Assembly: GCA_900764695.1 (NCBI GenBank)
Contig: CAAFOY010000089.1
Location: 1-23,819, forward strand
DNA: 23,819 nucleotides
Direction of reading: 5' to 3'
Source of the DNA: Lachnospiraceae bacterium
Lineage (GTDB): Bacteria; Bacillota_A; Clostridia; Lachnospirales; Lachnospiraceae
Below are positions 6,110 to 21,275 of the stretch, piece by piece. The translations under genes and the position numbers were made by a program. The notes under the pieces were generated by a model. It saw only the letters and a program-made list of their open reading frames with translations, had not been told where the DNA came from and ran no database searches. How positions within the stretch are numbered: the first letter of the stretch is position 1; every line of letters begins with the position of its first letter.

Positions 6110-6155
6110 TTTAACAGCATGACTTTTAGGTAAAGTAGATAATCAATGTTAAAAT
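6110..6155 (+). promoter_or_regulatory. promoter of the adhesin-sortase operon
   Basis: The sequence has TTTAACA (6110-6116), N5, ACTTTTAGGTAA (6122-6133), N13 and the extended -10 TGT-TAAAAT (6147-6155). A second -10-like TATAAT follows at 6155-6160. If TAGGTA is the -35 the spacer is 17 bp, but it is far from TTGACA, suggesting an activator or another sigma factor. The same arrangement, with identical spacing, lies at 12472-12517. Confidence 0.55.
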
Positions 6156-6159
6156 ATAA

Positions 6160-6250
6160 TTGTCAGTAACCGGGAATGACAAAAAACAAATTAATAGATT
6201 AACGCCAAGATGAACTCATTATATGTGAGTTTTAGTCTTGGCGTTTTTTA
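6160..6250 (+). promoter_or_regulatory. structured 5' leader with attenuator (copy 1)
   Basis: Directly after the predicted transcription start comes a small hairpin, TTGTCA (6160-6165) pairing with TGACAA (6177-6182), around the loop GTAACCGGGAA. An A/T-rich linker with AACAAATTAATA leads to a strong terminator hairpin (6201-6250), and the adhesin ribosome site comes only after that. Transcription into the adhesin must therefore read through a terminator. The same design precedes the transfer operon at 12523. No known riboswitch class was recognised. Confidence 0.6.
6201..6250 (+). terminator. intrinsic terminator in the adhesin leader (attenuator)
   Basis: AACGCCAAGA (6201-6210) pairs perfectly with TCTTGGCGTT (6236-6245), with an inner stem AACTCA/TGAGTT (6213-6218 with 6226-6231) and a TTTTTTATTTT tail. 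It lies between the promoter and the ribosome site of the adhesin gene, with no gene before it, so it acts on that operon itself. Confidence 0.8.
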
Positions 6251-6270
6251 TTTTATCAGGAGGAAAGTAA

Positions 6271-9200
6271 ATGTTAGGTAAATTAAAAAGAATTACAGCA
6301 ACAATATTAGCAATTGCAACGGTAGTAACATCAATTCCTATAATTAATGTTGCAGCAGCAGGCAATGGAGAGAAGAAGCAGGCAGGTATAGTAACTCTTG
6401 GGAAACTTGGAACAGTAAATATCGGATCAAAAAGTGAAAGTGGAACATGGGTAAAAACATTAGTGGATGGAAATGATGTGTTTTGCTTAGATTTAGGAAA
6501 GGCATGTCATACCGGATACACCTACATTGCATCCAACAGTACAATATCAAGTGATAGTTCTAATAAGAAAAATGCTTTGGAGGCTAAAATAGGATATTGG
6601 TATGATCAAACAAAAACGCGTTCAAACAAGGCATGGGTGTATGCACAGTGTCTTATATGGGCTGTTGAAGAAGGCATTACAAGTGAAACCGGATTAAAGG
6701 ATATCATTAAACAAGTTAAAAACAATACAGGATATTATGCAAATGATAGCCTTTATGCTGATATTTTTGAAGGGACAAGCGTAGTTAAGTGTACAATTAC
6801 AAAATGGAAATATAGTGGAAAAACTGATAGTGATGAAGTTCAGGAACTAATGGAAATTGTAGGAAATAGAAAAGAATACAAGTATACACCTATTAGTAAA
6901 AAAGATTACTACCGTCAGAGAATTACATTACAAAAGTGTGATGAAGATGGAAAAGAACTTCCACAGGTCACTTTTAGATTTACAGCAAAGAATATAAAAC
7001 AGTTATATTCTTATCAGTACAATGGCTGGGGAGATTCTGTTAAGGAAGATGTAGATGATGATGCTAACAAATTTAGTCAGGAAGTAAAAACAGATTCCAA
7101 AGGAAAAATCGTATTTCGTTTTACATACGAACTAAATTCTAAGAGTTATTATTATGTAGCAGATGAAGAGTTAAAGGATATGTCATCAAGTGATAAAAAA
7201 CAAATTAAGGACGAATTAGATGATAAGGGATATGATTATGCATCAGATTTGTCAAAAGCAGGAGCAGAAAAGTTAATAAAGAATGACATCAATGATCAGA
7301 TGGATGATATCTCAAACAATTACGTAATTGAAGAAATCTCATCAGGTAACAACAACATTCTTACATCGTTTGTTGTTGATGCAGGTTTAAATAAGATTAC
7401 CAGTCAGTCATCAAACAAGGTTACAGTAACACTTACAAAGTCTGATTCATGGAAGAAGAACAGTGATGGAAAGTGGCCCGAGACTGCAGAAGAGTCATAC
7501 AGTAATTACAAGCTTGCATACAAGCCTGTTCTTAAGGACAAATACAAGAAAGTAAAAATGACTGTGTGGAAAAAGGATTCTGAAACAGGCAGTACACCAC
7601 AGGGAGATGCAACATTGGAAGGCGCAGTGTATGGAGTATATTCAGATGTAGCATGCACAAAACTTGTAAAGTTATACAAGACCAATGCCAAGGGTACATT
7701 TGAAACAGACTATTACAGATGTGGTGTAAACATGTACTTAAAGGAAATTACACCGCCTGAAGGCTACCTTAAAAATGACAAGGTATACACAATCACAAAG
7801 GATGGTCAGCAGTTTACCAACGAATACAATTCGGCAGAAACACAGGTTGATGACGACGTGGTAAAAGGTGACGTATCAATTATTAAGGGAATGGGAAATG
7901 GTCTTGCAGGTATTGTTGCACCTGAAAACAAGGCACAGTTTCAGATTTACCTTGCAAGTGCAGGTTCATATGACAAGGCAAAGGCAACAGAAAGAGACAT
8001 TCTTACAACAGATTTAACAGGTTATGCAAAGTCAAAGAAGATGCCATATGGAACATATGTGGTTCATCAGACTGTTGGAGCTGCAAACACTGAAAAGTGT
8101 CCTGACTTTTACGTGAATGTGAAGGAAAACGGAAAGACATACAAGTATCTTTTAAACAATCCGGAATTCAACGCATATCTAAAAATTGTAAAGAAGGATT
8201 CAAAAACAAATCAGACAGTTTTAAAGGCTGGAACAACATACCAGATTTATAAGGTAAATGAGGATGGCAGTGAAACTCTTGTTACACAGACATACAGCAA
8301 TGGAAATGCAATTGAGGTTGTGGACAGATTTGTAACAGATGAAACAGGAGAAATCATTACTTACGAAAAGTTAAAAGCCGGTACATACAAGGTTTATGAA
8401 ATTGAAGGTCCGGAAGGATACAGGGTAAACAGACAGCCGGTGATGGTTGAGATTAACAGTAACTCATACAAGACAATGGTAGACAAACTTGGTAAGGAAT
8501 ATCTGTATGCAGAATGTGAGTATTATAATGATGTGACTTATGGAAAATTTACAATAAATAAAATTGGTCCTGAATTATGCAAGAAGGAAGATGAAAATGA
8601 TTCTGCAGATGAAAATACGGATGGTATAGCAAAGACAGATTTAGTAAATAAAAATGGTAGTGAGGGTGAAACAACAGGAAATGATGGCAATAAGTCAAAT
8701 GACATTGTTGTAAATCTATTTAACTATAAGGACACATTGCTAAATGGTGTTGTATTTGAACTTACTGCAAGAGAAGACATCATGTCACAGGATAATCAGG
8801 GAACAGTATTGTTTAAGAAGGATTCAGCTGTTGCAAAAATTACAACAGGTGAAAAGGCAGAGTTTACAAACGATTGTAATGGTATCTGTAATTTTGTGTT
8901 AAACGATGACGGAACAATCACACTTAATGTCCCACTTGGAGAATACACTTTAAAGGAAGTAAAGACAAAGTATGGTTATGTTCTTCCAGAACAGTCATTC
9001 TGTGACTTAAGTTTTAAGTGGAATAACAAGGATGATGAGTATGTGTTTGACATTTCTGAAAACTCAAAGGATGGAAAGATTGACATACACAATGACATGG
9101 TAAAGACAGACATTACACTTGAAAAGCATGATTCAAAGACAAATGAGCCTGTTGAAAATGCAAGATTTGGATTTTATTCAAGGGACAACATTTACGATAA

Positions 9201-10575
9201 GAATGGGAATGTGATTGTTGCTGCAGGTGAAAAGATTGCAACAGTAACAACTGACAAGGAAGGAAAGGCGAAAATCCCATTCGATGTACCTGTAATGGAT
9301 GAAGGTTATGGAAAGACGGAAGGCAACTTAAATTCAGGAGATTACTATTTCCTTGAAGAAAGTGTTAGCGACAGTTATTACATTAACAGGGAAAAACATC
9401 AGGTACATCTTGAATACAAGGATCAGGAAACCGCAGTTGTATCAGCCAAGGCAGTAGTTAAGGAAGACCAGACTGAAACAGTAATCAGTAAAAAAATGAT
9501 TGCATCATCAGTTGAGATTAAGGACTGCCATTTAAAAATCAGTGATGAAAATGGTAATGAAATCGTAAGCTGGATAACAGGTGAAATTTCATCAGTTAAG
9601 TTAAATGAAAAGATTGATGAGATGGGATATGATAACGTTCGTGTAGAAAACGGTGACGGTTATGCAGTTAAGATATACGGATTGCTTCATGACAGGGAAT
9701 ACACATTAACAGAAACAAAGCCGGCAGACGGTTTTGTAACTGCAAATGACATTACCTTTAAACTTGTGGAAAGTGATGACGAAAATGCAAAGACAAGGGT
9801 ACTTATAAAAGATGGTGATGCTTTTAATGAAAACATTGACAATCAGGTGGTAATGTATGATGACACAACAAAGATTGAATTTTCAAAAACAGACATTACA
9901 AACGGAAAGGAACTTCCGGGATGTCATATGCAGGTAACTGATAAGGACACAGGAAAGGTAATGGATGAATGGGTTTCATCAGAACAGAGTCACGTGATTG
10001 AAGGAAAGTACGCCGTGGGAAAAACTTATATTTTAACAGAAACAAAACCAAGAGACGGATACGCAACAGCAACAAGTATTGAATTCACGGTGGCTGATGA
10101 TGGAAAAGTACAGAAAGCAAAAATGGTTGATGACACAATCAAGGTTGAATTCAATAAGATTGCATCAGACACAAAGAAACAGCTTGGTGGTGCAAAGTAC
10201 AAGGTATATGACAGCAAGGGCAAAAAGATGTATGAGTTTACAACCGGAAAGAAAGCAGAATTTATCGAAGGCATCTTTAAGGTAGGAGAAACCTACACAT
10301 TTAAGGAAGTGGATGCACCAGAGCATTACAAGGTTGCAAAGGATAAGAAAATAAGAATTAAGGACACAGGAAAGGTTCAGAAACTTACAGTTACAGATGA
10401 AAGAATCCCTGTGGTACCTGACACACCACAGACAGGCATTAATGGAAAGACAGCAGGAATGGTGGTTTCACTTATTTCATTATTACTTGCACTTGGATGT
10501 TTTGCATGCGTAAGAGCAAAGGACAAGTCAAAATACAATTTTAAACAGGAGAAGGACGATGAAGAGGATAATTAA
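6271..10575 (+). CDS. thioester-domain / Cna-B repeat surface adhesin, sortase-anchored
   Basis: A 1434-residue wall-anchored protein. A signal peptide (1-30, ending VAAA) is followed by a thioester/TQXA-type domain (about 38-200). There C72 in FCLDLG and Q126 in AQCLIWA are the likely internal Cys-Gln thioester pair; C79 and C127 are also nearby. Several Cna-B/SpaA-like beta domains follow, beginning near residues 515, 630, 950 and 1185, with the recurrent [KH]DSKTN...Y and TYxxxE motifs; isopeptide cross-links are expected. The C-terminus has the sorting signal TPQTG (1385-1389), a membrane helix (about 1395-1417) and a charged tail. The xPxTG motif suits class B sortases, and a sortase gene overlaps its end. 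It probably mediates cell-cell or host contact during conjugation. AGGAGG lies 7 bases before the start. Confidence 0.88.
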   Translation: MLGKLKRITATILAIATVVTSIPIINVAAAGNGEKKQAGIVTLGKLGTVNIGSKSESGTWVKTLVDGNDVFCLDLGKACHTGYTYIASNSTISSDSSNKKNALEAKIGYWYDQTKTRSNKAWVYAQCLIWAVEEGITSETGLKDIIKQVKNNTGYYANDSLYADIFEGTSVVKCTITKWKYSGKTDSDEVQELMEIVGNRKEYKYTPISKKDYYRQRITLQKCDEDGKELPQVTFRFTAKNIKQLYSYQYNGWGDSVKEDVDDDANKFSQEVKTDSKGKIVFRFTYELNSKSYYYVADEELKDMSSSDKKQIKDELDDKGYDYASDLSKAGAEKLIKNDINDQMDDISNNYVIEEISSGNNNILTSFVVDAGLNKITSQSSNKVTVTLTKSDSWKKNSDGKWPETAEESYSNYKLAYKPVLKDKYKKVKMTVWKKDSETGSTPQGDATLEGAVYGVYSDVACTKLVKLYKTNAKGTFETDYYRCGVNMYLKEITPPEGYLKNDKVYTITKDGQQFTNEYNSAETQVDDDVVKGDVSIIKGMGNGLAGIVAPENKAQFQIYLASAGSYDKAKATERDILTTDLTGYAKSKKMPYGTYVVHQTVGAANTEKCPDFYVNVKENGKTYKYLLNNPEFNAYLKIVKKDSKTNQTVLKAGTTYQIYKVNEDGSETLVTQTYSNGNAIEVVDRFVTDETGEIITYEKLKAGTYKVYEIEGPEGYRVNRQPVMVEINSNSYKTMVDKLGKEYLYAECEYYNDVTYGKFTINKIGPELCKKEDENDSADENTDGIAKTDLVNKNGSEGETTGNDGNKSNDIVVNLFNYKDTLLNGVVFELTAREDIMSQDNQGTVLFKKDSAVAKITTGEKAEFTNDCNGICNFVLNDDGTITLNVPLGEYTLKEVKTKYGYVLPEQSFCDLSFKWNNKDDEYVFDISENSKDGKIDIHNDMVKTDITLEKHDSKTNEPVENARFGFYSRDNIYDKNGNVIVAAGEKIATVTTDKEGKAKIPFDVPVMDEGYGKTEGNLNSGDYYFLEESVSDSYYINREKHQVHLEYKDQETAVVSAKAVVKEDQTETVISKKMIASSVEIKDCHLKISDENGNEIVSWITGEISSVKLNEKIDEMGYDNVRVENGDGYAVKIYGLLHDREYTLTETKPADGFVTANDITFKLVESDDENAKTRVLIKDGDAFNENIDNQVVMYDDTTKIEFSKTDITNGKELPGCHMQVTDKDTGKVMDEWVSSEQSHVIEGKYAVGKTYILTETKPRDGYATATSIEFTVADDGKVQKAKMVDDTIKVEFNKIASDTKKQLGGAKYKVYDSKGKKMYEFTTGKKAEFIEGIFKVGETYTFKEVDAPEHYKVAKDKKIRIKDTGKVQKLTVTDERIPVVPDTPQTGINGKTAGMVVSLISLLLALGCFACVRAKDKSKYNFKQEKDDEEDN

Positions 10576-11260
10576 AATATCTCTGATACTTCTTTTAGTG
10601 GGGATGGCTGTGATTGCAGCTGTCCCTTTTTTAAAGGAAAAAAGAGCAGAGAAAAAGTATGAGAATGATTTTAAGAAGATACAAGAGAGCGTGACAGAAA
10701 AGAAGTCTGATGTAAATGGTCTCGTAAAGAAAAACAAGGACTGCATAGGTTATGTGGAAATACCGGGAACGACCATAAGTTATCCTGTGATGCAGACAAA
10801 GGACAAACCGGATTTTTATTTGAATCATGATTTTAACAGGAATTACAGTTTTTATGGGACACCATATTTAAGTGCATACTGTGATGTGGAAAAATCAGAC
10901 AACCTGATTATTTACGGTCATAACATAAACGGAGGAAAAATGTTTGGAGCACTGGAACAGTATAAGGATAAGGAGTTTTTTTATAAGCACAGGAAGATAT
11001 ATTTTACAACAGATAAAAAGAGGGAGTATGAAGTGTTTGCAGTGATGAGTGTTAACATACATGAGTTTGAATACTGGAAATTCGTAATGGCAAGAGATGC
11101 GAAGGAGTATGATGAGTTCGTTGACAAGGTGGAGGAGCATAGTTTGTGGAGACAGGGGAATAAGCCTAAGTATGGGGAGCAGATGCTGATGTTGTCTACT
11201 TGTGATAATGGAAAAGGGGATGATTGGAGAATTGTGGTTATTGGAAAAATGGTTGTATAA
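10559..11260 (+). CDS. srtB: class B sortase
   Basis: A 233-residue membrane-anchored transpeptidase. Residues 5-27 are an N-terminal signal anchor. The catalytic domain starts near residue 60 (IGYVEIPGTTISYPVMQ). The catalytic residues are H121 (IYGHNINGG), C215 (LSTCDNG) and R224 (DDWRIVVIGK). The long ISYPVMQ...YLNHDF segment and the helix around residues 180-195 are typical of class B rather than class A. It overlaps the adhesin by 17 bases, so that protein with its TPQTG signal is the obvious substrate. The next promoter begins about 50 bases downstream. Confidence 0.92.
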   Translation: MKRIIKISLILLLVGMAVIAAVPFLKEKRAEKKYENDFKKIQESVTEKKSDVNGLVKKNKDCIGYVEIPGTTISYPVMQTKDKPDFYLNHDFNRNYSFYGTPYLSAYCDVEKSDNLIIYGHNINGGKMFGALEQYKDKEFFYKHRKIYFTTDKKREYEVFAVMSVNIHEFEYWKFVMARDAKEYDEFVDKVEEHSLWRQGNKPKYGEQMLMLSTCDNGKGDDWRIVVIGKMVV

Positions 11261-11308
11261 AAAAAGCTAAGAGAATAAAAAAGATAATGGAAAGTTGAAA
11301 AATGTAAT

Positions 11309-11336
11309 TAGGTAAAGATACTTTTTATGTTAAAAT
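11309..11336 (+). promoter_or_regulatory. promoter of the orphan membrane-protein gene
   Basis: TAGGTAA (11309-11315), then 12 bp, then the extended -10 TGT-TAAAAT (11328-11336). It resembles the promoters at 6110 and 12472 but has a spacer one base shorter, lacks the upstream TTTAACA element and is not followed by the hairpin leader. It may be related but differently controlled. Confidence 0.45.
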
Positions 11337-11383
11337 ATTACATAGCAAAAGTGTAAAGTATAATAAAAGAAGGAGAGATTAAA

Positions 11384-12202
11384 ATGATAAAATTTATAAA
11401 AAAACATCTAAAATTAATTGTTACAATTTTTATAATAATAGAAGTTATAGCATGTTTGACATTTGCATTATTATGCCAGAAAACATATTGGATGGCCGAT
11501 TTGATTTTATTAAATTTGAGCTTTGCTCCAATATATATTTTGTACAATATCATAAAAAATAGAGAAGATAGACAAGTGACTTATTTAAATAAATTAACCA
11601 ACCAAACAAATAATTTTCTGATAAATAAAAGTTATAAAATTGTACAAATAATTTTGGTGGGTAGTTTTTTAATATTAATATTGGGCATTATCTTGATTAC
11701 CTTCAAATATCAGATATTAATGACGATAGGTACATATACTTTTATATTTGGAATAATATTAGTATTTATAGGGTTAATTCTAGTTCCGATATGCTTAAAT
11801 GATGAAAATAGTAATTTAACGGAGAAGGATATTAATAATATTAAATATATGCTAAGCATAAACGGTATAAAAACAATAGAAGAAATGAATCAATTAACTG
11901 TAGCGTTAAATAAAAAAAATGAAACTAAAAAGAAGTATACAACTTTAATAAAAATATATGCATCGGTAATTGTAATACCATTTTTAAATTATATATACAA
12001 GGAAGAGATTTTAAAGTATATTAAATTAAATACAATTTTCGTACAAATAGTTCTAATTGGTTTAGGGGTTGCAATTGTGGATTTTTTATATGCTGGAGTG
12101 AGATGCATTTTTGATGAAAATAAGTATAATGATAAGCAAATTGTTATAGCTATAGAACAAATTAAACTAATGAATATGATAAATAGTAAACAGCAAAAAT
12201 AA
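11384..12202 (+). CDS. multi-spanning membrane protein, function unknown
   Basis: A 272-residue protein with about six predicted membrane helices (near residues 10-32, 36-58, 86-110, 114-140, 190-206 and 218-242) and a polar stretch at 143-185 (NLTEKDINNIKYMLSINGIK). It is not recognised as any family. The ribosome site GAAGGAGAG lies about 9 bases before the start. Base composition is strikingly AT-rich (about 18% GC in 11401-11460), well below neighbouring genes, so it may have been acquired separately. It has its own promoter and sits between the adhesin and transfer operons. Entry exclusion, immunity or phage-defence cargo are possible roles, but nothing in the sequence proves one. Confidence 0.7.
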   Translation: MIKFIKKHLKLIVTIFIIIEVIACLTFALLCQKTYWMADLILLNLSFAPIYILYNIIKNREDRQVTYLNKLTNQTNNFLINKSYKIVQIILVGSFLILILGIILITFKYQILMTIGTYTFIFGIILVFIGLILVPICLNDENSNLTEKDINNIKYMLSINGIKTIEEMNQLTVALNKKNETKKKYTTLIKIYASVIVIPFLNYIYKEEILKYIKLNTIFVQIVLIGLGVAIVDFLYAGVRCIFDENKYNDKQIVIAIEQIKLMNMINSKQQK

Positions 12203-12243
12203 CATAGATGACTTACAGTTTGATTATGAAATTGTGAGTTTAT

Positions 12244-12411
12244 ATGTTAAGAATATTTGTAGATCCGTTTGATGGCAAAGTGACTACATACTATAAAAGA
12301 TTAGAAAAAAACACATTAAAATTACCTATTGCTCGATATTCTAATGAATTAAGAGAATGCAGGATGAAAGATAGACGATATAACGGAAAATCACTAATTA
12401 TGGACATATGA
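12244..12411 (+). other. possible 55-residue ORF or gene remnant
   Basis: An ATG at 12244 opens 55 codons to TGA at 12409, encoding a basic peptide (MLRIFVDPFDGKVTTYYKRL and onward, ending SLIMDI). No good ribosome site precedes it and no family is recognised; it may be a decayed fragment or chance. The remainder of 12203-12471 contains only AT-rich sequence with no terminator or gene seen. Confidence 0.25.
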
Positions 12412-12471
12412 TTAAAGACACTTGGGTATGTATATATTATTTTATCATCCTAACTGTAATTTTCCACAAAA

Positions 12472-12517
12472 TTTAACACTCCTACTTTTAGGTAATTACC
12501 CATCTCCATGATATTAT
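12472..12517 (+). promoter_or_regulatory. promoter of the transfer operon
   Basis: TTTAACA (12472-12478), N5, ACTTTTAGGTAA (12484-12495), N13 and the extended -10 TGA-TATTAT (12509-12517). All spacings match the adhesin promoter base for base, while the in-between sequence differs. This argues for a conserved recognition pattern rather than a recent duplication. Confidence 0.55.
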
Positions 12518-12522
12518 ATATC

Positions 12523-12625
12523 TATCAGAAACCTAGGACTGATACATAACAATTTAATAAGCAAATTAAGAAACGCCAAGAATGAACTTAGTGAGTTAAG
12601 TTCATCCATTGGCGTTTTTCTTTTT
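12523..12625 (+). promoter_or_regulatory. structured 5' leader with attenuator (copy 2)
   Basis: Five bases after the -10, as in copy 1, a hairpin forms from TATCAG (12523-12528) and CTGATA (12539-12544) around AAACCTAGGA. The second stem pair is A-T here and G-C in copy 1, a covarying change, while AACC and GGA are kept in the loop. A linker containing AACAATTTAATA and a strong terminator follow, then the AGGAGG of the first transfer gene. Confidence 0.6.
12571..12625 (+). terminator. intrinsic terminator in the transfer-operon leader (attenuator)
   Basis: The outer stem AAACGCCAA (12571-12579) pairs with TTGGCGTTT (12609-12617), and the inner stem ATGAACTTA (12582-12590) pairs with TAAGTTCAT (12597-12605). 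A T-rich tail follows. The outer stem shares ACGCCAA with the adhesin leader, whereas the inner stem differs but stays fully paired. Confidence 0.8.
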
Positions 12626-12656
12626 GCAAAATTCATATTAGCAGGAGGAAGACAAA

Positions 12657-13673
12657 ATGATGAATTACGAAGAATTCAAACAGAAAGTTCAGAATGAATT
12701 TAAAAATTATCTTGGAGAGGAATACAAGGACGCAGAAGTATTTATTAGAGAAGTAACAAAGGTTAATATGCAGGTAGATCAGATGTCATTGTTAAATCTT
12801 CCGGGAAATGATTTTGCATCACCTTCAATATCATTACAGAGCATTTTTGAGAATTATGAAAAAACAGGTGACTTTGAAGGTGTTATGGAAGCATTAAGCG
12901 AAACTTTTAAGGAGGCTATTGAAGGCTTTGAAAAGTCACCATTAAACAATGGATTAGATTTTAGTAATGTAGATAAAAATATTATTTTTACATTAGTAAA
13001 CGCAGAGCAGAACAAAGAACTTCTTGAAAATGTTCCACATAGGAAATTTGAAGATTTGGCAATTATATATCGTTGGAATGTAGGAGTTGACAGTAATGGT
13101 TTATATACCAACATAGTGACTAATGAATTTGCTGAGAAAATTGGAAAAAGTGAAGAAGAATTATATGGTCTTGCAAAGGAAAACACTAATAGGATTTTCC
13201 CGTCAGAAGTTAGAAATATGGCTGAGGTTATAAGTGAAATTATTTTTGGAGAAGATGGTGAGTTAATGCCGGAAGATGAAGAGTTCAGAAATATGATGAC
13301 AGAAACACCGGATGACAAATCAATGTATGTTATTACAAACAAGTCAAAATTGTTTGGAGCGGCAGCAATGCTTTATGAAGAAAATTTATATGATTTATCA
13401 CAGCAGCTTGATTCGGACCTTTATATATTGCCATCATCTACGCACGAGGTGATTGCTATTAGTGACAAGTTTGGAGATGCCAATGAGCTTGCGGATATGG
13501 TTTATGAAATCAATATGGATCAGGTTGACCTTAGTGACAGATTGTCAAATCAGGTTTACCACTATGATAAAGAAGCAAGAACATTAAGACTTGCAACAAA
13601 CAAATTTGAAAGAACAATCTCTGATGACATTAAGGAAAAAACACCGGAAATTGAAGAGGGAAAGGCTAGGTAG
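12657..13673 (+). CDS. DUF5688 family protein
   Basis: A 338-residue soluble, acidic protein resembling the DUF5688 family common in Lachnospiraceae mobile elements. Recognisable stretches are the N-terminal MNYEEFKQKV, RNVP-like ENVPHRKFEDLAIIYRW near residue 125, and the late motif FGAAAMLYEENL with YILPSSTHEVIAI near 240-275. No signal peptide, membrane helix or known catalytic motif is visible, and its function is unknown. It is the first gene of the transfer operon. AGGAGG lies about 8 bases before the ATG at 12657; a second ATG follows immediately at 12660. Confidence 0.75.
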   Translation: MMNYEEFKQKVQNEFKNYLGEEYKDAEVFIREVTKVNMQVDQMSLLNLPGNDFASPSISLQSIFENYEKTGDFEGVMEALSETFKEAIEGFEKSPLNNGLDFSNVDKNIIFTLVNAEQNKELLENVPHRKFEDLAIIYRWNVGVDSNGLYTNIVTNEFAEKIGKSEEELYGLAKENTNRIFPSEVRNMAEVISEIIFGEDGELMPEDEEFRNMMTETPDDKSMYVITNKSKLFGAAAMLYEENLYDLSQQLDSDLYILPSSTHEVIAISDKFGDANELADMVYEINMDQVDLSDRLSNQVYHYDKEARTLRLATNKFERTISDDIKEKTPEIEEGKAR

Positions 13674-13677
13674 AAAA

Positions 13678-13815
13678 ATGGACAAAAAAATTGAAGTTAA
13701 AGAAATTGAAGATGTGATTGAAATAATTAAGAACACATTACAAGGCTTAAAAGAAGATGAGGAAGTATATATAAGCGTTGAGGTGATAAAGCATGGAAAA
13801 AACAAAGTTGAATAA
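13678..13815 (+). CDS. small acidic protein, function unknown
   Basis: A 45-residue highly charged protein (MDKKIEVKEIEDVIEIIKNT and onward), predicted to be an alpha helix followed by a beta strand (EEVYISVEVIKHG). The frame can be extended to an ATG at 13591, but that would run within the previous gene. The ATG at 13678 lies 5 bases after its stop. It overlaps the radC-like gene by 23 bases, indicating coupling. No family is recognised. Confidence 0.5.
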   Translation: MDKKIEVKEIEDVIEIIKNTLQGLKEDEEVYISVEVIKHGKNKVE

Positions 13816-14341
13816 AGTATCTATTAGATTGATAAATGATGCACCACTTGTATCAGATGAACAACTTGATACGCCTAAAAAGGCAGCAAAAATTGTAGGT
13901 GATTTTATTAGAAATATGGATAGAGAAGTGCTTTGTGTTGTTAATTTTAATTCAAAATTACAACCAATAAATTTTAATGTAGTAAGTGTTGGAACAGTCA
14001 ATCAGTCATTGGCTGTTCCAAGGGATATATTAAAATCAGCAATACTTTCAAATGCAACAAACATAATGATTTTGCATAATCACCCAACAGGAATTTTAAC
14101 TCCTTCAACAGAAGATATAAAAACAACGTCAAAACTGATTGATACTTGTGACATGATAGGAATTCCACTTTTGGACCACATTATTGTAGGTCCCAACAGA
14201 GATGAATTTTTCAGTATGAAAATGAAGGAAGTTGTTAAGTTTAACAAAAGTGTAAATTATGAGGTTAGCCTGGAATTCTTAAAATTTAAAGAGCCTAATT
14301 TAAATCAGCTGACAGAGAAAAATAACAAATTAGCTAGGTAG
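13793..14341 (+). CDS. radC: RadC-like JAB/MPN domain protein
   Basis: A 182-residue protein with the RadC-type JAMM metal site HNHPTG...PSTED (H95, H97 and D108) and E45 upstream in NMDREVLCVV. It lacks the helix-hairpin-helix region of chromosomal RadC, as is usual for the short mobile-element versions. The family was once linked to DNA repair, but its biochemical role is unresolved; in mobile elements it often lies next to transfer or antirestriction genes. Here it precedes the candidate oriT, and its last codons form one arm of an inverted repeat belonging to it. Confidence 0.87.
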   Translation: MEKTKLNKVSIRLINDAPLVSDEQLDTPKKAAKIVGDFIRNMDREVLCVVNFNSKLQPINFNVVSVGTVNQSLAVPRDILKSAILSNATNIMILHNHPTGILTPSTEDIKTTSKLIDTCDMIGIPLLDHIIVGPNRDEFFSMKMKEVVKFNKSVNYEVSLEFLKFKEPNLNQLTEKNNKLAR

Positions 14342-14428
14342 AGGTTTTAGGATACCTCCTAACAAGAATGCATTTGTAGCTACAAATGCGTATCTTGCAA
14401 TATACATACCCACTACCTGTCTAGCTAA
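14330..14428 (+). other. oriT: candidate origin of transfer (oriT)
   Basis: This 99-bp stretch holds nested inverted repeats. Outer arms TTAGCTAG (14330-14337) and CTAGCTAA (14421-14428) are joined by GTAG/CTAC. Inside are a hairpin TTAGGA-TACC-TCCTAA (14347-14362) and a perfect palindrome GCATTTGTAG/CTACAAATGC (14370-14389), extended by CAAGA (14363-14367) and TCTTG (14393-14397). TATCTTGC (14391-14398) is one base from the YATCCTGY nick consensus of MOBP relaxases, 8 bases past the palindrome as in IncP-type origins. It sits directly upstream of mobC and the relaxase. Confidence 0.6.
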
Positions 14429-14439
14429 TAATACAAAAA

Positions 14440-14805
14440 ATGAAGAAGGTGATTGTATTGAAAAAGAACAACAAGGATATTACAAAGCGTGTACGTCTTA
14501 CAGAAAATGAATGCAGAAAAATTATGAAGGAAGCTAAAAAGAAGAATATGAATTTTTCAGCTTATGTAAGATATGCTGCAAAGCTTGATAAGAATATGGA
14601 TCCTGAATTTATAAAAGCAATTTATAAGTTGGCAAATGAAATCAACTATATAGGTCATAACATTAATCAGGTTGTAAAAAACAATAACAGTAAATTATAT
14701 TCTGAAATTGACAAGGCAAGATTAATGGAATATATGAGAATTTTAAACGAAAAAGTAGAAAGTCTTTTAAAACAGAATGGCTATAAGCAAAATTCTTCAT
14801 ATTAA
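14440..14805 (+). CDS. mobC: MobC-like relaxosome accessory protein
   Basis: A 121-residue basic protein. Residues 15-50 (ITKRVRLTENECRKIMKEAK, then NMNFSAYVRYAA) form the ribbon-helix-helix-like N-terminus of bacterial MobC proteins. Residues 60-110 (LANEINYIGHNINQVVKNNN and onward) match the conserved C-terminal mobilisation motif NxIGxNINQ. MobC binds near oriT and helps the relaxase open the DNA. A likelier start is TTG at 14458, which has GAAGGTGATT 5-8 bases upstream, whereas the ATG at 14440 has no ribosome site. It overlaps the relaxase by 29 bases. Confidence 0.85.
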   Translation: MKKVIVLKKNNKDITKRVRLTENECRKIMKEAKKKNMNFSAYVRYAAKLDKNMDPEFIKAIYKLANEINYIGHNINQVVKNNNSKLYSEIDKARLMEYMRILNEKVESLLKQNGYKQNSSY

Positions 14806-16204
14806 TCCACATATGAATTCGGAAAGTTATCATTTAAAAACCGGATTAAATTACATTACAAAAAGTGAAAAGACTATGAATGGACTTTATGTGGGAGCTG
14901 TTAATTGTATGGTGGAAAATGCATATGAATGTATGCGAACTACCAAGGAGATATATGGCAAAACTGATAAGAGACAGGCATATCATCTTATCATTTCATT
15001 TGAAGAGGGGGAAACAAATCCTGAGACAGCATTTGAAATAATAAAAGAGTTTGTTAACAGGTATTTGGCAGATAATTATGAGGCTGTTTATTCAGTACAT
15101 AATGATACCGACCACATTCATGGTCACATCATCTGGAACAGTGTGAGATTCACAGATGGTTACAAATACAGATACGAAAAGGGCGACTGGGAAAGACAGA
15201 TTCAGCCGTTAGTGGATGAAATTTGTGAGAAATATGGACTTCACACACTAGAACAAAATAAAACTAAAGATGATGAAAAGGAATGGGATGTTTCTAAAAA
15301 TGGTCCGTTTGTTTGGAATGAGCAGATAAAAAAGGATGTTGATGAATGTATTATTATGGCAACAGATTTTGATATGTTCATACAGATGATGGAAGAAAAA
15401 GATTATACAATAAAGTATGGCAAGTACATTTCTGTGAAGCCTAAGGGAATGGAGAGATTTAGAAGGCTTAAAACTCTGGGAGAAAACTATTCGGAGGAAA
15501 TAATCAGAAAAAGAATATCACAGAAAAGTATAGCTGGATACAAATCTATTGATATGCCAAAAGCACTAAGAATTAAAAGTTACAGAGGACATATTGGAAA
15601 GAAAAGACTTACAGGATTGCAGAAACAGTATTTTGCTATACTTTATAAATTAAAAAAGATTAAGAAGCATTCATATTCTAATAACTATAAATATAAGGAT
15701 GACATTAGGAAGTTGAATATATTGCAGAAACAATATATATTTCTTTCAAATTATGACATAGAGACTATGGAGGATTTAGAAAAATCACAGGAGTTAATAA
15801 AGGCTAAGATTCAGACAACCAACAAGGCAAAAAAGATTTTGATAGAGGAAAATAGTAAGCATGAAGAAATCTTCAAAGCAGTAAGAACAATTAAGAAAGA
15901 AAAACAGGCAGCGGCATTTTATAAGCTGGGAGATAAAACGTTTGAAAAACAAAATAATCTTGTAGAAGAGGCAAGAAAAATTTTAAAATGCGAAGAACTT
16001 ACTTACAAGGAAGCGGAAAAGTTAGAGACATACTATCAATCGTTAATTGATGAATGCAACAGAACAATTAAGAAATTAAAAAAAGATATGAGAATATCTT
16101 ACGGAATCTTAAAAGACATTAGATACAGAGAACAGAAAGAAACTTTACGACATGATGTCGCAAAGCAGGAAAAAGTAACTTCACGACACGATGTCGCAAA
16201 GTAG
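14777..16204 (+). CDS. MOBP-type relaxase/mobilisation nuclease
   Basis: A 475-residue relaxase. The family opening MAISKI is followed by motif I, SYHLKTGLNYI, with Y26 the likely nicking tyrosine. Motif III is the HxDxxHxHxH metal-binding signature (H108, D110, H113, H115 and H117) followed by IIWNSV. From about residue 270 the protein is Lys-rich and probably coiled-coil. It would nick oriT, stay attached to the DNA and pilot it through the channel. Its last 20 or so residues are odd: LRHDVAK and SRHDVAK repeats encoded by two tandem palindromic elements, so the C-terminus has probably been extended by repeat insertion. Confidence 0.92.
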   Translation: MAISKILHINPHMNSESYHLKTGLNYITKSEKTMNGLYVGAVNCMVENAYECMRTTKEIYGKTDKRQAYHLIISFEEGETNPETAFEIIKEFVNRYLADNYEAVYSVHNDTDHIHGHIIWNSVRFTDGYKYRYEKGDWERQIQPLVDEICEKYGLHTLEQNKTKDDEKEWDVSKNGPFVWNEQIKKDVDECIIMATDFDMFIQMMEEKDYTIKYGKYISVKPKGMERFRRLKTLGENYSEEIIRKRISQKSIAGYKSIDMPKALRIKSYRGHIGKKRLTGLQKQYFAILYKLKKIKKHSYSNNYKYKDDIRKLNILQKQYIFLSNYDIETMEDLEKSQELIKAKIQTTNKAKKILIEENSKHEEIFKAVRTIKKEKQAAAFYKLGDKTFEKQNNLVEEARKILKCEELTYKEAEKLETYYQSLIDECNRTIKKLKKDMRISYGILKDIRYREQKETLRHDVAKQEKVTSRHDVAK

Positions 16205-16237
16205 AAGAAAATAACTTCCCGACATAATGTCGTAAAG
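16141..16237. repeat. three tandem 36-bp repeats each carrying a 23-nt palindrome
   Basis: Copies start at 16143, 16179 and 16215, exactly 36 bp apart, with the general form CTTYRCGACATRATGTCGYRAAG. Two lie in the relaxase coding sequence and add RHDVAK repeats; the third is in the intergenic gap. A fourth copy forms the core of the terminator at 6045-6067. No T run follows these copies, so they are less likely to terminate transcription; they could still form hairpins in the mRNA. Confidence 0.8.
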
Positions 16238-16254
16238 TATGAATGGAGGAAAAG

Positions 16255-16596
16255 ATGGGACAGGAGTTTGAATGTGCATATAAGAATGCACAGAACGAGA
16301 GAAAGAAATCTGAAAGATTAAGGATTGAAAAAACGGAGATACCCAAGAAAAAATTTGGATTGTTAAAAAAGGTATTTTTATCAAAAAAAAACAACGACAG
16401 TCTTGTAAGAAAATTGTCAGCAGGAGAACTTACTGTTGCACAGTTAAAGCAAATTAATAGAGCAATCAAAAGTGGTCTTTCAGACAAGCAGCTTAATTCT
16501 ATTATAAATAGTAAAAAAGATGCTAGTAGAATGTCTGTGATAATAGACATTGCTATAAATGTTAATAAGATGAATCAGAAAGAGGTGAAATGTTAA
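16255..16596 (+). CDS. small conserved-looking transfer-operon protein, function unknown
   Basis: A 113-residue basic protein with a charged N-terminal half (ECAYKNAQNERKKSERLRIE) and a helical C-terminal half that includes LSAGELTVAQLKQINRAIKS, then GLSDKQLNSIINSK. The latter resembles the short 'gain-of-contact' helical repeats seen in ICE proteins, but no named family can be assigned. ATG 16255 has GGAGG 6 bases upstream; the in-frame ATG 16243 has none. The stop overlaps the start of the PcfB gene (TAATG), indicating coupling. Confidence 0.6.
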   Translation: MGQEFECAYKNAQNERKKSERLRIEKTEIPKKKFGLLKKVFLSKKNNDSLVRKLSAGELTVAQLKQINRAIKSGLSDKQLNSIINSKKDASRMSVIIDIAINVNKMNQKEVKC

Positions 16597-17522
16597 TGGC
16601 AGATGAAATCATGGAAGCAATACAAATGTTAAGGTTTGGATATGATGGTATAAAGTTAGGATTAGATGTAACAGGTTCCTCAATAAGAGAGGCAAAAAAT
16701 CTAACAATATTCATTGTTGGACTTTTAAATCATGAGAAAACACAAGGAAAAACAAGTCTTAAAAAGATGCTTAAAAATAGTGGTAATCTTCAGGTACTTC
16801 AAATAAAAGAAAAAGACGTAAAGGAATTTGAAAAACTGGCAGGGAAATATGGAATTTTGTATTCAAAAATGCCGGATATAAACAAAGGTGATGGCATGAA
16901 AGAATTTATCTTTCCGGTGGAGGCAACTCCAAGGATAAATGCATTGATAGAAAAACTAGGTAATGGCAAGCTTGAAGATATTGCAGAATATGTAAGAAAT
17001 GGAGATGGAAACTGCAAGAATACAATGGACTATCTTAAGAAGAAAAAATTATTACCGGAAGCACCAGTATCTGTTACTGCAGAAAGAAAAAAAGAAATTG
17101 TAAATGCAGAAAAGAATATTAAGTATAACGAGAATATTAATGACCTTGAAAAAATAGATATTACAATTTCAAAGAATCTTGTTGAAAGTGAAAAAAGAGA
17201 TTTATTCATAACAAGAGTACCGGGAACGTTTGGAGAAAATGTTAAATATCTTATTATAAAAAAGGAAGACATAATAACAATAAATGGAGGAAAGACATTT
17301 CTTACATTTTTAAACAAAAATCAGGAATATGAACTTCTTGATAAAAATAAGAAACCGGCAGGAAAAATGCGTGGTGAGGAATTAAGGGACAACTATTATG
17401 ACAAAGTTGGAGAAGAGATAAGAAAGAGAGCGAATAAGCAAAGGGACAAAGAAAGGCAGAAAAAGGAAAAAGTGAAGAAACATCAGGAAAGGGAAAGTAA
17501 GCCTATTGCAAAAAAGAAATAA
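16596..17522 (+). CDS. PcfB family (DUF3801) conjugation protein
   Basis: A 308-residue protein of the PcfB/DUF3801 family. The N-terminal 130 residues carry the typical pattern (LTIFIVGLLNHE, GKTSLKKMLK, VLQIKEKDVKEFEKLAGKYG, then ILYSKMPD). The C-terminal end is extremely Lys/Glu-rich (KRANKQRDKERQKKEKVKKH). In Enterococcus pCF10, PcfB works with the coupling protein PcfC to bring the relaxosome to the channel, and here it lies directly before the coupling-protein gene. ATG 16596 is preferred over ATG 16590 because GAGGTGA is then at normal spacing. It overlaps virD4 by 17 bases. Confidence 0.85.
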   Translation: MADEIMEAIQMLRFGYDGIKLGLDVTGSSIREAKNLTIFIVGLLNHEKTQGKTSLKKMLKNSGNLQVLQIKEKDVKEFEKLAGKYGILYSKMPDINKGDGMKEFIFPVEATPRINALIEKLGNGKLEDIAEYVRNGDGNCKNTMDYLKKKKLLPEAPVSVTAERKKEIVNAEKNIKYNENINDLEKIDITISKNLVESEKRDLFITRVPGTFGENVKYLIIKKEDIITINGGKTFLTFLNKNQEYELLDKNKKPAGKMRGEELRDNYYDKVGEEIRKRANKQRDKERQKKEKVKKHQERESKPIAKKK

Positions 17523-19545
17523 CAAGATGTTAGTTCCTTTTCTTATTGCAGGAGAACTTTTTGTCTTATTTATTTCATACATTATAAGTGGTGTATGGAA
17601 AGAAGGAATGGATGTAATAACTTTACTTAACAAGGTAAATGATGCATTAGATCATCCATTTAAAAATTATTGGACTGAACATAGTTTAAAGGCTATGATA
17701 GTCGGAACACTTATTTATGCAATGGCAGTACTTTTGTATATTACAAGCAGAAGAAATTTTATGCATGGAAAAGAGTATGGTACTGCAAGTTTCGCAAACA
17801 TAGATCAGGTAAATAAATCTATAAGTGATAAATCTGATGAGAAGAACAGAATACTTAGCAAGCACGTAAGGATGAGTACAGATACTAAAGTTACAAAGCT
17901 AAACAACAATATGCTTGTAATCGGTGGTTCAGGTGCAGGTAAAACATTTTATATTGTAAAGCCAAACATAATGCAAATGTTACCAAAGGGTTCGTTTATC
18001 GCAACAGATCCAAAGGGCGAGCTGCTTAGAGCAACTGGTGGGATGTTGAAGAAAAACGGATATAACGTAAAAGTACTTAACTTGATAGATATGGCTAAGT
18101 CGGATTGCTACAATCCATTCAATTATATAAGAACAGAAAATGATGTGATAAAGCTGGTCACAAATTTAATTAGTAATACAACGCCAAAGGAATCAGCCCC
18201 TACAGACCCATTTTGGGAACATGCGGAGGGGATGTTACTTCAGGCGTTGTTTTATTATGTATGGCTTGAGATGCCATCAAACCAAAAGAACTTTCAATCG
18301 GTTTTAAAGTTGCTGTCAGAGGCAGAGGTTAATGACAAGAAGGATTCAAAACTAACTATACGAATGAAAAAACTTGTAGATACAAGTTCACTTGGTGAAC
18401 ATCATCCGGCATATAGGCAGTATATGAAAGTGGTAAGAGGTGCAGGAGATACTGTAAAATCAATTATTATTTCAGTAAATTCACGATTAGCATTATTAGA
18501 AAATCCGCAGATATTGAGAATCTTGTCAAAGGATGACCTTCATATTGAAGAATTGGGAATAGGGACAAAACGAAATAGGGAAAAAAGAACAGCACTGTTT
18601 TGTGTAATACCCGATTCAGACAAGTCATACAACTTTTTGGTTGGAATGCTTTATACACAGCTATTTCAGGAACTTTATTATCAGGCTGACTTTAAGTTTG
18701 GAGGGAAACTTCCACTTGATGTCACACTTATGTTGGACGAGTTTGCCAATGTAGCTTTACCTGATGACTTTTGTTCATTACTGTCAACTATGAGAAGTAG
18801 AAGAATCAGCGCAATCATCATTATTCAGAATTTGGCGCAGATAAAGGCACTGTTTAAAGAAACATGGGAAACAATTACAGGTAACTGTGACACCCTTGTA
18901 TATCTTGGTGGAAATGAAAAGTCTACCCATGAATATATATCTGAGTTACTTGGTAAAGGCACTATAGACAAAAGGTCAACAGGTGAAACAAGAGGTGTAC
19001 ATGGTTCGGCATCAAGAAATTATGATGTGCTTGGCAGACCCCTTATGAATCCTGATGAAGTAAGAAATATGGATAACAAAAATTGCCTTATTTTCATAAA
19101 GGGATTTAATCCTATATTTGATGAAAAATATTGGCCTTTTGACCATAAGAATTTTAAACAAACAGAAGATGGAGGGGCAAAGCCTTATACACACAATATT
19201 AGGAAAAGTAACAAAATTAAGGATGGATTAAAAATTTACAGTGAAAGAGAAATCAAAGAAGTTGAGAAGTCAGGAGAAAAAGTTAACATTATTGATTTGA
19301 CTCCACAAGAGATTGCAGCATTACAGGCGAGTGAGTTTCAGATGGAGACAAAACCAACAGATGAAGAATTAAGAGAGGAGCTTACAACAAGACTATGTAC
19401 AATGGATTTTTCAGCAGAGCAAATGGACGAAGCAAAAAAGGCATTAGCAATAAAAATGGATTTGAAGTATTTGCTTGAATACTTAAAACCGGAAATATCC
19501 ATTGAAGAAATGAAAGAGAAACTAGAAAAATATCAAAGCAGATAA
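17506..19545 (+). CDS. virD4: VirD4-like type IV coupling protein (CD1115 family)
   Basis: A 679-residue TraG/VirD4 ATPase. Two N-terminal membrane helices (about 8-30 and 62-82) precede the nucleotide-binding domain. Walker A is GGSGAGKT (140-147) and Walker B is LMLDEF (408-413). Other family motifs are FIATDPKGELLRATGG, DPFWEHAEGMLLQAL, TMRSRRISAIIIIQNLAQ and GNCDTLVYLGGNE. The C-terminal 90 residues are acidic and probably contact substrate. It couples the relaxase-DNA complex to the mating channel. It overlaps the PcfB gene by 17 bases; an alternative start is Met8. Confidence 0.94.
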   Translation: MQKRNNKMLVPFLIAGELFVLFISYIISGVWKEGMDVITLLNKVNDALDHPFKNYWTEHSLKAMIVGTLIYAMAVLLYITSRRNFMHGKEYGTASFANIDQVNKSISDKSDEKNRILSKHVRMSTDTKVTKLNNNMLVIGGSGAGKTFYIVKPNIMQMLPKGSFIATDPKGELLRATGGMLKKNGYNVKVLNLIDMAKSDCYNPFNYIRTENDVIKLVTNLISNTTPKESAPTDPFWEHAEGMLLQALFYYVWLEMPSNQKNFQSVLKLLSEAEVNDKKDSKLTIRMKKLVDTSSLGEHHPAYRQYMKVVRGAGDTVKSIIISVNSRLALLENPQILRILSKDDLHIEELGIGTKRNREKRTALFCVIPDSDKSYNFLVGMLYTQLFQELYYQADFKFGGKLPLDVTLMLDEFANVALPDDFCSLLSTMRSRRISAIIIIQNLAQIKALFKETWETITGNCDTLVYLGGNEKSTHEYISELLGKGTIDKRSTGETRGVHGSASRNYDVLGRPLMNPDEVRNMDNKNCLIFIKGFNPIFDEKYWPFDHKNFKQTEDGGAKPYTHNIRKSNKIKDGLKIYSEREIKEVEKSGEKVNIIDLTPQEIAALQASEFQMETKPTDEELREELTTRLCTMDFSAEQMDEAKKALAIKMDLKYLLEYLKPEISIEEMKEKLEKYQSR

Positions 19546-19559
19546 GGAGAAAATCAGAT

Positions 19560-19877
19560 ATGAAGAGATTTAAGAAAAATATTGGAAACATAAAAAACTG
19601 TTTAATTGGGGCAACGTACATGACAGTATTTCAGGTAAATAACGTACTTGCTGCGGGAGATGCAAGTTCAGTTACAAAACCACTTGATAACTTAAAGACA
19701 CTGGTGCTTGCAATCATTGGGGCAATCGGCGTAATTATTCTTGCAAAGAATGTAATGGAGTTTGCACAGGCATATCAGGCACAGGATTCATCAACAATGA
19801 ACTCGGCACTTAAGGGAATTGTTGCAGGAGTAATGATGGCAGGCATTTCATCAGTACTTGGAATATTGGGATTCTAG
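19560..19877 (+). CDS. Maff2 family / TrbC-VirB2-like membrane protein
   Basis: A 105-residue protein with an amphipathic basic N-terminus, a likely signal or processing region ending LAAGDASS (about residue 34), and two membrane helices (about 45-65 and 84-104) joined by the polar loop QAYQAQDSSTMNS. Glycine/alanine-rich helices and size match Maff2 and VirB2/TrbC-like pilin or channel subunits of Gram-positive conjugation systems. Ribosome site AAGGAG. Position between virD4 and virB6 is standard for the family. Confidence 0.83.
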   Translation: MKRFKKNIGNIKNCLIGATYMTVFQVNNVLAAGDASSVTKPLDNLKTLVLAIIGAIGVIILAKNVMEFAQAYQAQDSSTMNSALKGIVAGVMMAGISSVLGILGF

Positions 19878-19890
19878 AGGGAGGTGCAAC

Positions 19891-19995
19891 ATGAACGAAG
19901 TGAATGTTTTGGAACGCACCGACCGACTTGCCGACGAGCAAAGCGAGGGGGCGTTACCGAAGGGAGGTAAGAGATTATGGACATATTTAGCTTAG
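19891..19995 (+). CDS. tiny ORF upstream of virB6, possibly a leader peptide
   Basis: A 34-codon frame (MNEVNVLERTDRLADEQSEG, then ALPKGGKRLWTYLA) has an excellent ribosome site, GGGAGGTG, and overlaps the virB6 start by 19 bases. Its sequence is GC-rich (58% in 19921-19980), unlike most of the window. It may only couple translation between Maff2 and VirB6, be a real small protein, or be a fragment carried in with the GC-rich patch. No family is recognised. Confidence 0.35.
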   Translation: MNEVNVLERTDRLADEQSEGALPKGGKRLWTYLA

Positions 19996-20819
19996 GCGGT
20001 GTAATCCTTGATCTTTTGCAGACGGTTGTTGATTTCTGGAATGACAAGGTGTCTCTTGTTTTTGAACTGCTGGGGCAGTCTCCGGTAAGCTTCAAGAACG
20101 GAGGCCCCTGGGCCGTGGTGGCAAACCTTGAACCCATATTTGTGGCGGTTGGTTCGTCACTGGTGGTTCTGTTCTTTGTAATAGGTTTCTGTTCGGAGAG
20201 CATTGACGTAAAGGAAGAGGTAAGATTTGAAACCATACTAAGGATGTTAATGAGAATAGGAATAGCAGAATGGCTTGTTGCAAACAATGTGACAATAATG
20301 AAGGCATTTTTTACATCAGCAGGAAATCTGGTGGGGCTCATGACACAGGGAACAACAACCAAGCTAAAGATACCAAGTGAACAACAGACAATCATAAAGG
20401 ACCTTGGATTCGGGGAAAGCCTTTTGATGATGATACTTGCAGTAATCATTGCACTTGTAATCATTTTCTGCGGTTTCATGCTCATATACACCGTGTATTT
20501 CAGATTCTTAAAAATACTTGTGGTTGTACCCTTTGGTGCACTTGCGTTTTCAACTGTAAGCGGAAACCGGATGGTAAGTCATTCGGCAGTAAGCTATGCA
20601 AAGTACTTTCTGTCAATAGTGCTGGAGGCAGTGACAATGGCACTTGCAATAATTGTCTGCAATGCATTTTTGAATGCAGGACTGCCAACGTTTACAAGTG
20701 ATTACGCGGACTGGACCAAGGCACTGATGTACATGTGTGAACTTACATTCAGTGTGGCAATGACAGTCGGAGCAGTGAAGGGAGCACAGAATCTTACAAG
20801 TAAGGCACTTGGATTATAG
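19977..20819 (+). CDS. virB6: VirB6/TrbL-like inner-membrane channel protein (CD1112 family)
   Basis: A 280-residue polytopic membrane protein with about six helices (near residues 50-75, 95-110, 140-175, 177-200, 205-230 and 240-270) and the N-terminal VILDLLQTVVDFW motif typical of the family. It probably forms part of the inner-membrane translocation pore with VirB4 and PrgI. GGGAGG lies about 9 bases before ATG 19977. The first 180 bases are noticeably GC-richer than the rest of the gene. Confidence 0.85.
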   Translation: MDIFSLGGVILDLLQTVVDFWNDKVSLVFELLGQSPVSFKNGGPWAVVANLEPIFVAVGSSLVVLFFVIGFCSESIDVKEEVRFETILRMLMRIGIAEWLVANNVTIMKAFFTSAGNLVGLMTQGTTTKLKIPSEQQTIIKDLGFGESLLMMILAVIIALVIIFCGFMLIYTVYFRFLKILVVVPFGALAFSTVSGNRMVSHSAVSYAKYFLSIVLEAVTMALAIIVCNAFLNAGLPTFTSDYADWTKALMYMCELTFSVAMTVGAVKGAQNLTSKALGL

Positions 20820-20834
20820 AAACAGGAGGAACAG

Positions 20835-21227: not shown

Positions 21228-21275
21228 GAAACATAAAGGAAAATTTAACACAGGAAAATAAACGGAGGAACAGGA

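What the first reader, a model, noticed from the sequence alone, without database searches (positions are those of the whole stretch)
6160..12625. Two operons share the same structured leader with an attenuator-like terminator
Copy 1 (6160-6250, adhesin-sortase) and copy 2 (12523-12625, transfer operon) have the same order. A hairpin with a TGTCA/TGACA or TATCA/TGATA stem has a loop keeping AACC and GGA; an A/T linker with AACAAWTTAATA follows, then a strong terminator beginning ACGCCAAGA, then AGGAGG and the ATG. Stem bases differ but stay paired (G-C versus A-T in the small hairpin; different inner stems in the terminators), and the loop differs by one base in length, which suits RNA better than a DNA operator. 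Terminators with no gene before them imply controlled read-through. I do not recognise the class; it may be an undescribed cis-regulatory RNA, or a protein target, linking surface adhesion to transfer.
Basis: partly seen in the sequence, partly recalled or inferred. Interest (0 to 1): 0.8.

Follow-up and report, generated by a model that had tools for sequence, protein, structure and literature searches.

The report
Shared start-stop leader on conjugation operons
A mobile gene element related to ones in Lachnospiraceae bacteria puts the same leader (a fixed promoter, a small hairpin, then an early stop signal) in front of both its surface-adhesion genes and its DNA-transfer genes, which may switch sticking and transfer on together.

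Summary
Two leaders in one integrative conjugative element (ICE), before the SpaA adhesin-sortase genes and before the DUF5688/relaxase/T4SS genes, align far above shuffles (score 89; shuffles mean 22, max 44, 0 of 2000). A covariance model of three copies finds full copies in two genomes of one Lachnospiraceae genus, before the adhesin orthologue in both and before the DUF5688 orthologue in one (protein identity to the window 62% and 57% in G001). A replication-gene copy keeps promoter and terminator but has another hairpin. No Rfam family matches; overlapping draws of 397, 392, 79 and 329 genomes added no full copy. The terminator's 5' arm pairs with nothing stable upstream, so no classical attenuator fold. 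Best reading: a conditional leader terminator needing antitermination keyed to the 5' hairpin. Hairpin evidence is modest: one compensatory pair, matched by 108 of 500 shuffles. RNA versus DNA recognition stays open. New variant of a known kind.

The parts
6122..6130 (+). copy 1: ACTTTTAGG promoter block
   Evidence: shared with copy 2 (D9) and with 5 copies in G001/G399, one of them AGTTTTAGG
6147..6155 (+). copy 1: extended -10 TGTTAAAAT
   Evidence: 25 nt after the start of the block in 7 of 7 copies examined; the weaker resolvase copy L138 was not among them
6160..6182 (+). copy 1: 5' hairpin, loop with AACC..GGA
6201..6250 (+). copy 1: leader terminator, outer stem ACGCCAAGA/TCTTGGCGT
6258..6263 (+). 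copy 1: Shine-Dalgarno AGGAGG
6271..10575 (+). SpaA-domain surface adhesin (1434 aa), first gene after copy 1
   Evidence: Pfam PF17802, 6 stretches; 62% identical to the G001 orthologue
10559..11260 (+). sortase, second gene
   Evidence: Pfam PF04203
10600..10627 (+). terminator-like hairpin plus T run inside the start of the sortase gene
   Evidence: dG -18.6; same place in G001 (-13.9) and G399 (-16.6)
12484..12492 (+). copy 2: ACTTTTAGG promoter block
12509..12517 (+). copy 2: extended -10 TGATATTAT
12523..12544 (+). copy 2: 5' hairpin, loop AAACCTAGGA
12569..12619 (+). copy 2: leader terminator
12643..12648 (+). copy 2: Shine-Dalgarno AGGAGG
12657..13673 (+). DUF5688 protein, first gene of the transfer operon
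   Evidence: Pfam PF18941; 57% identical to the G001 orthologue
13793..23639 (+). transfer genes: RadC, MobC/NikA-like, relaxase, DUF3801, VirD4, PrgI, VirB4-like ATPase
   Evidence: Pfam

Best explanation
Each leader is a start-then-stop gate. A shared extended -10 promoter starts transcription at the base of the hairpin, so the nascent RNA begins with a short stem-loop, then an unstructured A/U linker, then a strong intrinsic terminator whose 5' arm begins about 40-50 nt from the start. By default most polymerases stop there and make a short RNA of roughly 90-100 nt. Full expression needs antitermination: a factor, ICE- or host-encoded and not identified, recognises the 5' stem-loop (in most copies stem TATCA/TGATA, loop AACC..GGA) and lets RNA polymerase pass. 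Because the adhesin-sortase and transfer operons carry the same gate and the same promoter, mating-pair adhesion and DNA transfer switch on together. Shown here by computation: layout, conservation in orthologous places, lack of a competing upstream pairing. Inferred: start site, termination, read-through, recognition of the hairpin, identity of the factor.
For: Fixed geometry in 7 of 7 copies examined: block, extended -10 at offset 25, next feature 4-5 nt later (L138 not included). R1, built from the two window copies and G001:C218, finds G001:C41 (E 1.8e-16) and G399:C144 (E 6.5e-18), both before the adhesin orthologue. C218 is before the DUF5688 orthologue. Protein identities of 57% and 62% to the window imply long divergence. 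A search for ACGCCAAGA..TTGGCGT in four genomes found 4 sites in G001, each upstream of a mobile-element-type gene: DUF5688, adhesin, RepA_N type, resolvase. Terminators of the five core leaders are strong (-22.7 to -26.3) and lie 13 nt before the Shine-Dalgarno sequence in three adhesin copies. Little upstream pairing of the terminator 5' arm (at most 0.16 per base in six of seven leaders; a 2-bp contact at 0.6 in G001adh). The sortase carries an internal sense terminator in three of three elements.
Against: The hairpin is weak (-3.6 to -5.1 in the five core copies) and not better than shuffles. One compensatory pair, 108 of 500 shuffles as good; copy 1 lacks the closing G-C pair. The G001 replication-gene copy keeps promoter and terminator but has a different hairpin; the resolvase copy L138 has another loop and no clear promoter block. 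No candidate factor: one NusG-type gene in each of four genomes, the housekeeping one in the two whose neighbours I read (neighbours named by recognition). The terminator core also occurs as an ordinary end-of-gene terminator (G013; G299 after tRNA-Ser). No transcript data.
Confidence: 0.5

Rival explanations
1. Control is at the DNA. An activator or unusual sigma factor reads ACTTTTAGG in the -35 region and a dimeric repressor binds the inverted repeat over the start site. The terminator is only an insulator against transcription from upstream, leaky enough for the induced promoter.
For: The block is as conserved as the hairpin and rigidly phased to the -10. The repeat lies at a fixed place at the predicted start. 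In G001 and G399 the arms and the CCGG centre are symmetric. Tn916 T1 is a known insulating terminator (passages of PMC11658703).
Against: Half-site spacing differs inside one ICE (11 and 12 nt between TCA and TGA) and is 10 nt in G001, awkward for one dimer. An insulator placed after the promoter still hinders the promoter's own transcripts.
Confidence: 0.25
2. The 5' hairpin itself, as cis RNA, turns RNA polymerase terminator-resistant (like put, EAR or canT), so transcripts from this promoter pass the leader terminator and internal ones without an element-encoded protein.
For: Hairpin at the predicted 5' end; strong terminator right after; conserved internal terminator in the sortase and several intergenic ones in the G001 transfer region. 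No factor recognised among the proteins scanned (not every ORF was scanned). canT is most likely a cis RNA (passages of PMC11658703).
Against: At about 22 nt it is far smaller than canT (452 nt; a 341-nt fragment still active). The hairpin is not conserved in the replication-gene copy. If always active it gives no switch.
Confidence: 0.13
3. The hairpin is a 5' stabiliser against 5' exonuclease and the terminator merely sets a low constant level; no regulation.
For: 5'-terminal stem-loops stabilise some Gram-positive mRNAs (recalled, no call). Weakness and loop differences would be tolerated.
Against: Does not explain the AACC..GGA loop kept between diverged elements or the invariant ACGCCAAGA arm.
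Confidence: 0.08
4. The terminated leader is itself a trans-acting small RNA, or is controlled by a countertranscript as in pCF10.
For: The layout would release a short RNA. Antisense extended -10 words exist near copy 1 (offsets 128 and 182) and copy 2 (offset 151).
Against: No antisense extended -10 word in the other five copies examined. No competing fold for a countertranscript to switch.
Confidence: 0.04

Closest known systems
conAn bipartite antitermination (pLS20 family)
   Same: Start of a Gram-positive conjugation operon; terminators inside the operon; only main-promoter transcripts should pass (passages of PMC8955417).
   Different: conAn needs the protein ConAn1, encoded at the operon start. 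tblastn of six early pLS20 genes, including the one that gene order suggests is ConAn1 (my inference), gave no match below E 0.14 in the window or the G001/G399 contigs tested, while pLS20 VirD4 did match. R2 gives no convincing match in 40 kb of pLS20 (best E 0.027).
canT and terminator T1 of Tn916
   Same: ICE; terminator that insulates; antitermination needed for transfer genes (passages of PMC11658703).
   Different: canT is several hundred nucleotides long and meets T1 only after excision; here one compact leader of about 130 nt is repeated on two operons.
pCF10 prgQ leader (IRS1, anti-Q, PrgU)
   Same: An adhesin and T4SS genes under one leader with terminators; RNA-level control (passages of PMC8265641 and PMC7117660).
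   Different: pCF10 has one long operon and alternative folds switched by a countertranscript; here two operons, no alternative fold found, no conserved antisense promoter word.
LoaP with the dfn/mln leader hairpin
   Same: Small hairpin then terminator in the leaders of long operons, two operons named as targets (passages of PMC12691694).
   Different: LoaP reads a UNCG hairpin; here the loop is AACC..GGA. Only one NusG-type gene in each of four genomes.

Membership tests
Any Rfam 15 family | match at the curated score | tested here: not met
   only GA-cis, elsewhere in the window; none in leader loci L115, L116, L118, L119, L138; below-threshold matches to the window leaders fall far short of the curated scores
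conAn | ConAn1 homologue at the operon start | tested here: not met
   with VirD4 as positive control; which pLS20 gene is ConAn1 was inferred, and the window does not hold the whole ICE
conAn | intrinsic terminators inside the operon | tested here: inconclusive
   sortase-internal terminator in 3 of 3 elements and intergenic ones in L113; none tested for function
LoaP regulon | NusG paralogue in the genome | tested here: not met
   one NusG-type gene per genome in 4 of 4; beside ribosomal-protein genes in G001 and G399 (recognised, not scanned); none of these is the window's own host genome
LoaP regulon | UNCG-type leader hairpin | tested here: not met
   loops
Riboswitch, T-box or countertranscript attenuator | antiterminator pairing that competes with the terminator | tested here: not met
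   seven leaders folded up to the 5' arm
Intrinsic terminator | GC-rich hairpin then T tract | tested here: met
Cis-acting RNA antiterminator (put, EAR, canT) | orientation-specific read-through caused by the RNA itself | not testable with these tools
   needs reporters or in vitro transcription

The most novel reading that the evidence does not exclude
A compact 5'-terminal RNA hairpin of about 20 nt, sitting at the start site, is the loading signal for a new antitermination system of Lachnospiraceae ICEs. It controls a two-operon regulon (adhesion and transfer), and at least one related element keeps promoter and terminator but has swapped the hairpin, as if each element carried its own specificity key.
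Probability: 0.2. Interest if true: 0.75.

Novelty: new variant of a known kind. Interest (0 to 1): 0.5.

Why it matters
Antitermination is known to guard conjugation operons of a few Gram-positive model elements (pLS20, Tn916). If this leader works as proposed, a compact form of the same logic exists in ICEs of Lachnospiraceae, a large group of gut and rumen bacteria. It would tie surface adhesion to DNA transfer through one short leader that can be tested with a simple reporter.

Tried and rejected
Viral contigs: a promoter-plus-loop pattern gave 69 stretches; with at least 5 stem pairs and a T run behind, only the window's own two copies remained. Two more patterns gave 6 and 14 stretches; R2 scored 20 of these loci, the two best (L151 E 9e-4, L149 E 0.035) were read and are not full copies. 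Relatives of the VirB4-like protein in viral contigs: none; of DUF5688: 4 loci, none with this leader by eye. Blastn of leader stretches found nothing in plasmids or phages, except that copy 2 hit Enterococcus plasmids weakly (E 5e-3, 30% of the query, from the T-rich stretch over the Shine-Dalgarno sequence); I take this as chance. The pattern TTTAGGNAA..AACC..GGA matched 111 of 397 family genomes; the reversed control also matched in many rows (not totalled), and on skimming the list only G001 looked credible. R2 in the same 397 genomes: 12 at E <= 0.05, of which G001 alone holds full copies, G299 and G013 hold the terminator only, and the other nine look, by eye, like end-of-gene terminators or coding sequence. 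Further draws: 6 of 368 at E <= 0.01, five of them already seen, the sixth (G298, L170) not a copy by eye; 0 of 392 at E <= 0.001; 1 of 79 at E <= 0.001, an end-of-gene terminator by eye; 1 of 329 at E <= 0.0001, G001 itself; 0 of 10 DUF5688 genomes at E <= 0.01. These draws overlap and most used strict filters.

Rejected: riboswitch or countertranscript attenuator (no competing fold); LoaP; known Rfam class. A CsrA site (GGA in a loop) was considered and not tested; GGA is absent from the hairpins of L119 and L138.

Literature: the listings of the ten searches showed no title or abstract start describing this leader; I read no full paper, only passages found by term. DUF5688 occurs in no paper of the library. 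The original conAn paper was not held and is known here only through other papers. Passages of PMC6540685, PMC8092201, PMC11730352 and PMC11701678 were also seen.

Full report
What the window is. The window reads as a large part of an ICE: integrase, NikA-like protein, a RepA_N initiator, a CAP-domain protein, a SpaA-domain adhesin and a sortase, then DUF5688, RadC, MobC, relaxase, DUF3801, VirD4, PrgI and a VirB4-like ATPase. ParA and ParB at 2166-3804 are named from their sequence, without a call. No whole genome is held for it, so its host is not known; its DUF5688 relatives lie mostly in Lachnospiraceae records.

Observation. Copy 1 (6122-6263) and copy 2 (12484-12648) agree in order: ACTTTTAGG, 25 nt from its start an extended -10 (TGTTAAAAT; TGATATTAT), 4 or 5 nt later a hairpin, a linker, a terminator opening with ACGCCAAGA, AGGAGG, ATG. 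The alignment score of 89 stands far above 2000 shuffles (max 44).

Homologues. Of 12 loci encoding DUF5688 relatives none showed the leader by eye or with model R1, but another contig of the genome holding L001 did. It precedes a DUF5688 gene 57% identical to the window's. Model R1 from these three copies found six matches in the three genomes held of that genus. G001:C218 was in the model. G001:C41 and G399:C144 are new full copies, both before the adhesin orthologue (G001's is 62% identical to the window's; G001's and G399's are 94% identical). G001:C27, before a RepA_N-type gene and upstream of an integrase with a Tn916-type DNA-binding domain, keeps promoter and terminator but has another hairpin. 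G001:C52 has promoter and hairpin, then unrelated sequence. G299:C1 has only the terminator, after tRNA-Ser. R2 adds a weaker G001:C22 before a resolvase (35.7 bits). C41 shows ParB-like, RepA_N-like, CAP-like, leader, adhesin and sortase in the window's order, with extra genes between (ParB, RepA_N, CAP and sortase named there by likeness to window proteins).

Distribution. Full copies were found in two genomes besides the window. Family, order, genus and phylum draws add none. These draws overlap, used strict filters, and did not include G399 in the family sample list of matches, so they miss members. The class is rare or narrow in what is held; absence elsewhere is not proven.

RNA evidence. 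Hairpin pairs on five sequences: 96.7% of cells paired against at most 43.3% when slid; one pair changed on both sides (A-U to G-C in copy 1); 108 of 500 shuffles do as well. The stem is weak. This fits RNA and does not prove it. The terminator's outer ACGCCAAGA arm does not vary among the leaders, even where copy 2 has lost pairing at its inner end, while inner stems differ; this hints at sequence recognition, from one event. In the terminator-only piece of G299 one base of the arm differs.

Mechanism. Folded up to the terminator's 5' arm, seven leaders show no stable upstream partner. A terminator 13 nt before the Shine-Dalgarno sequence in three adhesin copies leaves little room for a later promoter; in G001's transfer copy the gap is 44 nt, so there a later promoter is less excluded. 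Read-through is therefore the likely route. Sense terminator-like hairpins inside the sortase in three elements, and between genes downstream of VirB4 in G001 (L113 near 7932, 6690, 6130, 3976, 2329), fit a processive antitermination system, since internal terminators are taken as a sign of such systems (passage of PMC8955417). The same scan also found weaker hairpins on the antisense strand. None was shown to work, and some may end separate transcripts.

Wider theme. Of 19 starts examined (two in the window, the G001 transfer start, 16 other DUF5688 loci), 7 have a terminator within 220 nt upstream: both window starts, G001, L002, L005, L007, L011; 12 do not. Eight of those 12 have an ORF of at least 60 aa ending within 60 nt upstream, and for L168 the position used was not the start codon and a terminator lies further up. 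Random 220-nt stretches: 52 of 300. The other terminators are unlike ours in sequence, so a leader terminator before this operon may be common while this particular leader is not.

Verdict. A real shared leader; most likely a conditional terminator that couples adhesion and transfer; the factor and the chemistry are open.

Noticed in passing
window 19875-19962: GA-cis RNA (Rfam RF02987, 66.2 bits) lies inside the transfer operon between two small genes; not found at threshold in the G001 element L113. The only paper listed for GA-cis was the Rfam release paper.
   Followed up: partly
L113 8935-11535: In G001 the VirB4-like gene is interrupted by a group II intron with an ORF that looks like its reverse transcriptase.
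   Followed up: no
L113 3205-3852: The G001 element carries a protein with two SpoVG stretches, a possible nucleic-acid-binding regulator.
   Followed up: no
L005, L007, L011 upstream of DUF5688: Repeated TGGTGTA words and a different, mutually similar terminator precede the transfer operon, perhaps a second leader type.
   Followed up: partly
L113 6090-6130: A strong hairpin overlaps the ribosome-binding site of an NlpC/P60 gene in the G001 element.
   Followed up: no
L120 and L117: A partial leader (promoter and hairpin) in G001:C52 and a terminator-only piece after tRNA-Ser in G299 share a short nearby repeat in opposite orientation, seen by eye; perhaps recombination remnants.
   Followed up: partly
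loops of leader hairpins: window 6168-6176 and 12530-12538; L115, L119, L138: Each loop region holds a short palindrome (CCGG, CCTAGG, CTTAAG, TTTAAA) although the sequence differs; unexplained, could be chance, loop-loop contact or DNA symmetry.
   Followed up: partly
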